Shown here piece by piece: positions 44,548 to 47,185 of a stretch of DNA of 48,705 bases. The position numbers and the translations under genes were made by a program. The notes beneath the pieces are model-generated. The model searched no databases. It was not told the origin of the DNA and saw only the letters and a list, made by a program, of their open reading frames with translations. Each line of letters starts with the position of its first letter. Position 1 is the stretch's first letter. This DNA is from Candidatus Bathyarchaeota archaeon (GTDB lineage Archaea > Thermoproteota > Bathyarchaeia > 40CM-2-53-6 > RBG-13-38-9): positions 1-48,705 of the forward strand of contig JAGTRD010000002.1 of the NCBI GenBank assembly GCA_018396915.1. Reading direction: 5' to 3'.

Positions 44548-45861
44548 TTGAACTCCAATGGTGTAACCAGCTTGATTCGCATAATTAAACTCAGAGAGCT
44601 CAAAGATGAGAATCTAGAGAAGATTGTAAATCGTGGTTTTCTAGACTTGAAACATGTTGAGATGGATGTTAAACATGTAGTGGAAGAGGTCAGAAGCAGG
44701 GGTGACGACGCTCTATTTGAATTTACGTATAGATTTGACGGATTAGAATTAGACTCTAATAGTGTTAAAGCTACAAGAAGTGATTTTGAAGAAGCTTACA
44801 AGAAAGTTAAGCCGATAGAGATTAGAGCGCTGAGGAGGGCTGCCTCGAACATAAGAAGGTTCCATGAGATACAATTCAGAAATCTCACATTTCAATGGCA
44901 TCGCCGAGATGTGAAGATGGGGGTAGTGACCAAGCCGATATCTTCAGTCGGCATCTATGCTCCAGGCGGGAGGAGACCTTACCCCTCATCCGTCCTGATG
45001 TGCGCCATACCCGCGAAGGTTGCAGGTGTAGACCGGATTATCCTGTGCAGTCCACCATCTCCGAAAGAAAGATTCAACCCTCACATTCTCGTAGCTGCTG
45101 AGATAGCCGGTGTGGATGAGGTTTACTGTGTAGGCGGAGCGCAAGCCATTGCAGCGATGGCTTACGGAACCCAGACATTGAGTCCTGTCGAGAAAATAGT
45201 GGGACCCGGAAATATTTACGTCACAGCGGCTAAGCTCCTCGTTAGTGGCCACGTAGCAGTTGATCTTCCAGCTGGGCCGAGCGAAATTCTAATCATTGCG
45301 GATGATAGTGCTGAAGCTAAATTCGTTGCAGCCGACCTTATGGCTCAAGCTGAGCATGACGAGAAGGCCACATGTATTCTAATAACTACTTCTGAAGAAC
45401 TAGCAAAAGATGTGGATAAGCATATAGAAGATGTGGCAAGTGTGGCACCCCAAATGGTGATTGCTTCAAGGGCTCTGGAGAATAATGGCATCATAATAAT
45501 TGTCGAAAACTTTACAGATGCTATAGCCTTGGCTGATAAAATAGCTCCAGAGCATTTAGCCTTAATGGTCAGAAGGCCGGAACGTTTACTCAAAAGAGTA
45601 AGGAACGCTGGAATGATCTTTTTAGGAAAGTATTCGCCTGTGGCGGTGGGCGACTATTGTGCTGGTACAAATCATGTACTGCCTACCGGTGGATATTCAA
45701 AGGTATACTCCGGCCTCTCAGTCAGAGACTTTCTTAAAACAATCAACTACTTACATTGCTCGAAGAATGGATTGAAGAGGATGGCTGAGACTGCGGTGAC
45801 CTTAGCTAGTATTGAGGGGTTAGAACTTCACGCTGAATCGATCAGAATCAGAAATATTTGA
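44548..45861 (+). CDS. hisD: Histidinol dehydrogenase
   Basis: Oxidises histidinol to histidine in two NAD-dependent steps. It has 437 residues in the long frame. GGRRPYPSSVLM, the segment VGGAQAIAAMAYGT, AGPSEILIIAD and the zinc-site region DLMAQAEHDE, with H--PTGG near the C-terminus, are intact. The frame begins at TTG 44548; TTG at 44572 (LIRIIKLREL) fits the family better. First gene of the histidine operon here. Confidence 0.94.
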   Translation: MNSNGVTSLIRIIKLRELKDENLEKIVNRGFLDLKHVEMDVKHVVEEVRSRGDDALFEFTYRFDGLELDSNSVKATRSDFEEAYKKVKPIEIRALRRAASNIRRFHEIQFRNLTFQWHRRDVKMGVVTKPISSVGIYAPGGRRPYPSSVLMCAIPAKVAGVDRIILCSPPSPKERFNPHILVAAEIAGVDEVYCVGGAQAIAAMAYGTQTLSPVEKIVGPGNIYVTAAKLLVSGHVAVDLPAGPSEILIIADDSAEAKFVAADLMAQAEHDEKATCILITTSEELAKDVDKHIEDVASVAPQMVIASRALENNGIIIIVENFTDAIALADKIAPEHLALMVRRPERLLKRVRNAGMIFLGKYSPVAVGDYCAGTNHVLPTGGYSKVYSGLSVRDFLKTINYLHCSKNGLKRMAETAVTLASIEGLELHAESIRIRNI

Positions 45862-46003: not shown

Positions 46004-47185
46004 TTGTTCAACAGCAAATATCGCATATTAGATAGAGATACCTTATTGATGATGAACGCTATTGAGAAAATATCAGGCGTAACACGAATAACCTTCGACT
46101 GTGACGGAGTTATAGTGATCGATAGGGATTCGTATAGGGCAACGATAATAAACGCGGTCGATTATTATTTCCTTGAACTTCTTAAGCTAAAAGGAAATAG
46201 AGGAAGGTTGGTGACCCATGATGACATACAAAGAATCAAGGATACCGGAGCTTTCAACAATGATTGGAATCTGACCTACATGTTAATCATGTATTATATT
46301 GCACTCTTACTCAACCATCTAATTAAAGAAGTTAATTTTAGAGATATTGAGAAAACACAGACAACTTCTGGCTTAAACGAGACTCTTAAGACGCTTAGGA
46401 TGGTTGGTTCTGCAGCTGCACGTTTAGGAATCGACACTACCTATCTTGAAATGATGAAAAATGATAGAACACTAGGCTTGGACAAGCTTATCGGCAGAAT
46501 CGATGGGAGATCAGCCATTTCAATACCGAGAGAGATCCAGTTATTCTTTGGGCTTGAAGACAGAGTTTTGAAGATCGCCGAATATCTCTGCCCTTTCAAG
46601 ATGGAAGGAGATGATCTATTAAGGAGACTGTTTGATGAGATCTATTTGGGCCGTACACTTTACGAGAAGTTCACAGGTAGAAGGGCAGTCTTCAAGTTTG
46701 TTAAGGGGCTTATAGATGAGGAAAGAATAATTCCAACAACACAAACTCTAGAAAAAATAGAACAGAGATTTGGCCTTTCTGGAATATATTCGGAGAGACC
46801 TCGAGAAGAAGCCTTATACACTCTGAGGAAACACAGGATCCTAAGATATTTTGATGAGAAGGCGATGTTCTTCAATGAGGACATAATAGGTGAGGACCCT
46901 CGGCGACTCGGCTTTGGAAAACCAGACCCCAGATCTTTCCTAAGATTTATCGATACCTCCTCCATGAGAAACCATGCAGTTGCATATGTTGGAGATACAG
47001 TTACAGACGCTCTCCTGATAAAGAATGTAAAGGCTTTGGGAGTCAAAGACCTAGTGTTCATCGGAACATTGTCCTCTTCGCCGAACCCTGAAGGTTTAAA
47101 AAGCAAGTTTATGGAGTTAGAAGCTGATGCAATCGTATATGACGTAAACAACATACCTAAAATGATTGAAGGTTTAGAGATTTGA
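46004..47185 (+). CDS. HAD-superfamily phosphatase in the histidine operon
   Basis: A 393-residue HAD hydrolase. Nucleophile Asp32 and acid Asp34 lie in FDCDGVIV, motif II Ser263 in YSERPREEA, motif III Lys306 in GFGKPDP, and motif IV in VGDTVTD (Asp331, Asp335). The long helical insert between motifs I and II (about 60-250) acts as a large cap. The core resembles the HAD subfamily IA group TIGR01548 by its xRPREEA segment. It lies between hisD and hisB, with its TGA overlapping the hisB TTG. This suggests histidinol-phosphate phosphatase, which is otherwise missing from the cluster. Reaction inferred from context. Confidence 0.85.
   Translation: MFNSKYRILDRDTLLMMNAIEKISGVTRITFDCDGVIVIDRDSYRATIINAVDYYFLELLKLKGNRGRLVTHDDIQRIKDTGAFNNDWNLTYMLIMYYIALLLNHLIKEVNFRDIEKTQTTSGLNETLKTLRMVGSAAARLGIDTTYLEMMKNDRTLGLDKLIGRIDGRSAISIPREIQLFFGLEDRVLKIAEYLCPFKMEGDDLLRRLFDEIYLGRTLYEKFTGRRAVFKFVKGLIDEERIIPTTQTLEKIEQRFGLSGIYSERPREEALYTLRKHRILRYFDEKAMFFNEDIIGEDPRRLGFGKPDPRSFLRFIDTSSMRNHAVAYVGDTVTDALLIKNVKALGVKDLVFIGTLSSSPNPEGLKSKFMELEADAIVYDVNNIPKMIEGLEI

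What the first reader, a model, noticed from the sequence alone, without database searches (positions are those of the whole stretch)
46004..47185. HAD phosphatase as candidate histidinol-phosphate phosphatase
The histidine operon hisD-HAD-hisB-hisH-hisA has no HisB-N, PHP-type or HisN-type phosphatase in view. The HAD gene has all four catalytic motifs and its stop overlaps the hisB start. Its very long helical insert sets it apart from known histidinol phosphatases, so it may be a separate solution to the missing step in archaea.
Basis: partly seen in the sequence, partly recalled or inferred. Interest (0 to 1): 0.6.

Follow-up and report, generated by a model that had tools for sequence, protein, structure and literature searches.

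The report
Archaeal HAD histidinol-phosphate phosphatase candidate
A phosphatase gene inside the histidine-making operon of a Bathyarchaeia archaeon, and of many other archaea including ammonia oxidisers, very probably supplies the one step of histidine synthesis for which these organisms had no recognised enzyme; the enzyme activity itself has not been measured.

Summary
Window 46004-47185 (+) encodes a 393-aa HAD hydrolase with all four motifs, and its TGA stop overlaps the hisB TTG start. It lies in hisD-HAD-hisB-hisH-hisA-hisF-hisIE of a Bathyarchaeia genome (96% complete). hisG and hisC are elsewhere, so histidinol-phosphate phosphatase (HolPase) is the only unfilled step. The genome has no IMPase-like protein, no HisB-N over cut-off, and one off-family PHP protein. 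The HAD is not peculiar to this genome: relatives occur in 137 of 398 sampled genomes of the phylum, 130 of which have hisB, and in 56 of 62 cases with coordinates listed for both genes it lies directly 5' of hisB, usually behind hisC. A PHP-type candidate HolPase occurs in 22 other genomes and never with the HAD. Literature adds that a Haloferax HAD insertion mutant (HVO_0431) is a histidine auxotroph. The protein is HAD subfamily IA with a ~226-residue helical cap, related to TIGR01548 and Thermococcus Tt82 (6IAH), and is not of the capless HisB-N type. Best reading: a non-orthologous HolPase of archaea, confidence about 0.87. New variant of a known kind. Open points: no assay; its relation to the characterised Thermococcus onnurineus HolPase could not be checked.

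The parts
46004..47185 (+). HAD subfamily IA hydrolase, 393 aa, candidate histidinol-phosphate phosphatase
46091..46111 (+). HAD motif I, residues 30-36 (TFDCDGV): D32 predicted nucleophile, D34 acid/base
   Evidence: invariant in 19 relatives
46109..46741 (+). all-helical C1 cap, residues ~36-246
   Evidence: AlphaFold2 model; cap length per relative
46241..46267 (+). cap signature DTGAFNNDW, residues 80-88, predicted substrate contact
   Evidence: G82 and N85 invariant in 19 relatives; role inferred
46622..46651 (+). cap signature RRLFDEIYLG, residues 207-216
   Evidence: F210 and G216 invariant in 19 relatives; role inferred
46790..46792 (+). HAD motif II, S263
   Evidence: S or T in all relatives
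46919..46924 (+). HAD motif III, K306-P307
   Evidence: invariant
46991..47008 (+). HAD motif IV, G330-D331-TVT-D335
   Evidence: D335 invariant; D331 is N in three distant relatives
44548..45861 (+). hisD, histidinol dehydrogenase
   Evidence: TIGR00069 529.7 bits
47182..47760 (+). hisB, imidazoleglycerol-phosphate dehydratase alone, no HisB-N domain
   Evidence: PF00475 2.9e-51, NF002111
47760..48368 (+). hisH, imidazole glycerol phosphate synthase subunit
   Evidence: TIGR01855 226.6 bits
48373..48705 (+). hisA, runs off the window; followed on the contig by hisF and hisIE

Best explanation
The gene encodes the L-histidinol-phosphate phosphatase (EC 3.1.3.15) of this archaeon. It is a HAD subfamily IA enzyme in which Asp32 attacks the phosphate to form an aspartyl-phosphate, Asp34 protonates the leaving L-histidinol and then activates water, Ser263 and Lys306 hold the phosphate, and Asp331/Asp335 with Asp32 bind Mg2+. 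A large helical C1 cap closes over the site and is predicted to read the imidazole and amino groups through the conserved G-x-F-N-N-D-W and F-D-E-I-Y-x-G segments. Shown: the motifs, the fold prediction, the operon, the conserved gene order, and the absence of alternatives over cut-off. Inferred from HAD biochemistry: the catalytic steps. Inferred: the substrate and the cap contacts.
For: (1) Every other step is encoded: hisD/B/H/A/F/IE in the operon, hisG, three hisC over cut-off. (2) No IMPase and no HisB-N over cut-off; the only PHP protein is CehA/McbA-like and scores 16 bits against a 90-bit HisJ cut-off. (3) In all 14 relatives read, down to ~25% identity, the gene sits directly behind hisC or hisD, and in every one whose contig runs on it is followed by hisB. 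In Ca. Bathyarchaeum tardum hisG-hisD-hisC-HAD-hisB-hisH-hisA-hisF-hisIE are contiguous. Five further families outside the class have the HAD directly before hisB, and a Jordarchaeia contig, cut off inside the HAD, has hisD-hisC-HAD. (4) Across 398 genomes 130 of 137 with the HAD have hisB, odds ratio 15, and 56 of 62 pairs with listed coordinates are adjacent. (5) A PHP-type candidate HolPase (NF004981) occurs in 22 genomes, none with the HAD; in G040 it lies behind the his genes. (6) Insertion in HVO_0431, a Haloferax HAD hydrolase, gives histidine auxotrophy (PMC4300041), and it was proposed as the missing HolPase (PMC8305020).
Against: No assay or mutant exists for any member of this family that I could read. 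In some lineages (e.g. f36) the homolog is not next to hisB, and 7 of 137 genomes with the HAD show no hisB at the threshold. Many hisB-positive genomes, including other Bathyarchaeia (family f11, 26 genomes), lack it, so HolPase there is still unknown. Genome counts are not phylogenetically independent. I could not test whether HVO_0431 itself belongs to this family. Motif IV Asp331 is Asn in three distant relatives.
Confidence: 0.87

Rival explanations
1. The true HolPase of this genome is the short PHP protein on contig C14 (locus L019, 223 aa) and the HAD does something else, such as general phosphate salvage.
For: It has PHP motifs, and PHP-type HolPases exist. Weak hits to HisJ-family models.
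Against: Best family is CehA/McbA metallohydrolase (74 bits); HisJ TIGR01856 16 bits against a 90-bit cut-off, PRK06361 18 against 117. It lies next to a metG-like gene, with no his genes in the stretch read. It does not explain the conserved position of the HAD.
Confidence: 0.05
2. One of the other HAD proteins of the genome (loci L021-L024, L119) is the HolPase and the operon HAD has a regulatory or housekeeping role.
For: HAD phosphatases are promiscuous; five further IA-type HADs exist in the genome.
Against: The four that were scanned resemble phosphoglycolate phosphatase, beta-phosphoglucomutase and CTE7-type HADs; none of the five is in a his operon. The operon HAD is kept beside hisB across the phylum.
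Confidence: 0.04
3. The operon HAD acts on another phosphorylated compound linked to the pathway, for example removing a damaged or toxic intermediate (house-cleaning), and histidinol phosphate is hydrolysed by an unspecific activity.
For: The solved relative Tt82 (6IAH) is titled as having diverse substrate specificity (title in the reference list of PMC9226320).
Against: Every other step of the pathway has its enzyme; the HAD is mutually exclusive with a PHP-type candidate HolPase.
Confidence: 0.04

Closest known systems
NCBIfam TIGR01548 (HAD-SF-IA-hyp1)
   Same: Best NCBIfam family for the window protein and matched by all 19 relatives; same motifs.
   Different: 71.5 bits against a 140.2 cut-off; ~120 more residues in the cap. 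The family has no assigned function.
Phosphatase Tt82, Thermococcus thioreducens (PDB 6IAH)
   Same: Profile E 8e-26, TM-score 0.80 over the target, shares VLIDVRESY and G-S-F-G-D-D-F at the FNNDW position.
   Different: 240 aa with a much shorter cap; reported as a phosphatase of diverse specificity (title only). His context not checked.
S. aureus protein Q8NW41 (PDB 1QYI)
   Same: Best fold match, TM 0.65, with a comparably long cap aligned end to end.
   Different: 18% identity; function unassigned in PDB.
HisB-N, HAD-type HolPase of Gammaproteobacteria (TIGR01656)
   Same: HAD superfamily chemistry and the same proposed substrate.
   Different: No large C1 cap in that type (from general knowledge); 12.5 bits against an 84.15 cut-off; the fold search lists no HisB among its 50 best.
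Monofunctional HAD-type HolPase of Thermococcus onnurineus (Lee et al. 2008)
   Same: Archaeal, HAD superfamily, monofunctional (as cited in PMC5516325).
   Different: Sequence and paper not available here, so its subfamily, and whether it is related to this family, could not be tested.
HVO_0431 of Haloferax volcanii
   Same: HAD hydrolase whose disruption causes histidine auxotrophy; proposed HolPase.
   Different: Sequence relation to the window protein not tested.

Membership tests
HAD superfamily, subfamily IA | Four catalytic motifs (DxD, S/T, K, acidic motif IV) | tested here: met
HAD superfamily, subfamily IA | Helical cap between motifs I and II (C1 cap) | tested here: met
   AlphaFold2 model helices 41-59 to 236-239; Foldseek hits are IA HADs
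TIGR01548 | Score above the curated cut-off | tested here: not met
   71.5 bits against 140.2
HisB-N type HolPase (TIGR01656) | Score above cut-off, no C1 cap | tested here: not met
   12.5 bits against 84.15; 226 residues between motifs I and II
HisB-N type HolPase (TIGR01656) | Four-ligand Cys/His zinc loop (recalled feature) | tested here: not met
   only C33 and C196 in the translated sequence
PHP-type HolPase | PHP domain | tested here: not met
   no PHP hit in the window protein
IMPase-like HisN | Inositol_P domain | tested here: not met
   none in the genome
Histidinol-phosphate phosphatase (function) | Encoded with the his pathway, which otherwise lacks this step | tested here: met
Histidinol-phosphate phosphatase (function) | Hydrolysis of L-histidinol phosphate | not testable with these tools
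   needs assay or complementation

The most novel reading that the evidence does not exclude
A separate HolPase family of HAD subfamily IA, with an expanded helical cap recognising histidinol phosphate through a G-x-F-N-N-D-W signature, arose independently of HisB-N and serves Bathyarchaeia, ammonia-oxidising archaea, Jordarchaeia and possibly haloarchaea.
Probability: 0.65. Interest if true: 0.6.

Novelty: new variant of a known kind. Interest (0 to 1): 0.5.

Why it matters
HolPase was the commonest low-confidence step among 148 prokaryotes able to make all amino acids (42 organisms, 28%; GapMind, PMC7311316), and was reported as unannotated in all ANME and methanogen genomes surveyed (PMC9012536). 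This family would fill the step in much of Thermoproteota, including ammonia oxidisers, remove a false auxotrophy from metabolic reconstructions of uncultured archaea, and give a further example of HolPase being replaced by an unrelated or distantly related phosphatase. One assay or complementation would settle it.

Tried and rejected
A 19-member alignment was too divergent for the single genome-contig scan; a closer 6-member one worked. Plasmid search for relatives found nothing. Lee et al. 2008 and the Tt82 paper are not held, and paper searches gave no text on TON_0887. Centring a genome search on a Jordarchaeia locus was not accepted. IMPase presence across the phylum did not discriminate: it is present in 351 of 398 genomes. 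The idea that the long insert is peculiar to this gene was rejected.

Full report
What is there. The ORF at 46004-47185 (+) is 393 aa with a TTG start. It follows hisD (44548-45861) after a 142-base gap, and its TGA stop overlaps the TTG start of hisB. hisH and hisA follow in the window, and hisF and hisIE beyond it. Pfam finds HAD hydrolase domains above cut-off. The best NCBIfam family is TIGR01548 at 71.5 bits, half its cut-off of 140.2, with an alignment that needs about 120 extra residues in the cap. The gene is under purifying selection (dN/dS 0.23; core 0.19, cap 0.26).

What the pathway lacks. The genome (1.63 Mb, 42 contigs, 96% complete) also has hisG on contig C9 and three hisC over cut-off. 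With hisIE, hisA, hisH, hisF, hisB and hisD this leaves histidinol-phosphate phosphatase as the only unfilled step. No IMPase-like protein is present, although the same search rings in all 14 control genomes. No HisB-N reaches cut-off (best 29 bits against 84). The one PHP protein resembles CehA/McbA metallohydrolases and is far below the HolPase models. Of five further HADs, four were scanned and look like phosphoglycolate-phosphatase or phosphoglucomutase types; the fifth (L119) was seen only as an ORF.

Conserved neighbourhood. Sixteen of 60 related genomes have a homolog. In the 14 loci I read the gene lies directly behind hisC or hisD, and in each one that runs far enough it is followed by hisB. 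Named relatives are Candidatus Bathyarchaeota, including the cultivated Ca. Bathyarchaeum tardum, a Nitrosopumilaceae MAG and two Jordarchaeia MAGs, so the window is from class Bathyarchaeia. In Ca. B. tardum hisG-hisD-hisC-HAD-hisB-hisH-hisA-hisF-hisIE are contiguous. Loci of four more families outside the class (f26, f55, f56, f48) have hisD-hisC-HAD-hisB, and one of f47 has hisD-HAD-hisB; in f58 the HAD follows hisC and hisB comes about 1.1 kb later.

Numbers. In 398 genomes of the phylum the profile finds 137 with the HAD at E <= 1e-12 and 275 with hisB; 130 have both (Fisher p 2e-18, odds ratio 15). Of 62 genomes with coordinates listed for both genes, 56 have the HAD directly 5' of hisB on the same strand. 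The archaeal PHP family NF004981 (histidinol phosphate phosphatase domain) occurs in 22 genomes, none of which has the HAD (p 8e-7 within hisB-positive genomes). In G040 that PHP gene lies behind hisA-hisB-hisF-hisD-hisH. In family f11 hisC abuts hisB with no HAD. These p-values ignore relatedness: the PHP pattern rests on three families, the HAD pattern on about sixteen.

Structure. An AlphaFold2 model from 13 sequences (pLDDT 87, pTM 0.84) gives a Rossmann-like HAD core and an all-helical cap at about 36-246. The best PDB matches are 1QYI (S. aureus, TM 0.65) and 6IAH (Thermococcus Tt82, TM 0.80 by target); the rest of the top 50 are subfamily IA HADs and engineered proteins on that fold, with no HisB listed. 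The cap signatures G-x-F-N-N-D-W and L-F-D-E-I-Y-L-G are conserved across relatives, and a trace of the first is visible in 6IAH. The cap spans 211-233 residues in most relatives and 173-182 in the f26, f55 and f58 types.

Literature. Three HolPase kinds are known: HAD (HisB-N and a monofunctional one in Thermococcus onnurineus), PHP and IMPase-like (PMC5516325). In Haloferax volcanii a transposon in the HAD gene HVO_0431 caused histidine auxotrophy (PMC4300041), and the gene was proposed to fill the only remaining gap (PMC8305020). I could not read the T. onnurineus paper or test the sequence relation of that enzyme or of HVO_0431 to this family. From memory, not checked: TIGR01548 was built from halobacterial, cyanobacterial and Phytophthora sequences, some annotated as imidazoleglycerol-phosphate dehydratase.

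Verdict. The difference from known HolPases is one of subfamily and cap. If the T. onnurineus enzyme belongs to this family, the finding drops to a new member of a known kind; otherwise it is a distinct HAD solution.

Noticed in passing
L091 (G119, family f11); one search list: A large Bathyarchaeia family (26 hisB-positive genomes) lacks the HAD, and none of it carries the NF004981 PHP; in the one locus read hisC directly abuts hisB. Its HolPase is unidentified.
   Followed up: partly
L077, L079, L081: Three distant homologs carry G-N-S instead of G-D-S in motif IV while D335 is kept; possible change in metal binding.
   Followed up: no
PDB 1QYI (S. aureus Q8NW41): A staphylococcal protein of unassigned function shares the long cap and a G-x-N-x-N-W-D trace at the FNNDW position.
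   Followed up: no
G000 whole genome: No PF00459 (IMPase/archaeal FBPase) at all, although 351 of 398 genomes of the phylum have one.
   Followed up: partly
L079 (G075): In family f36 the homolog lies away from his genes, near a homoserine-kinase-like gene and an isopropylmalate-dehydrogenase-like gene.
   Followed up: no
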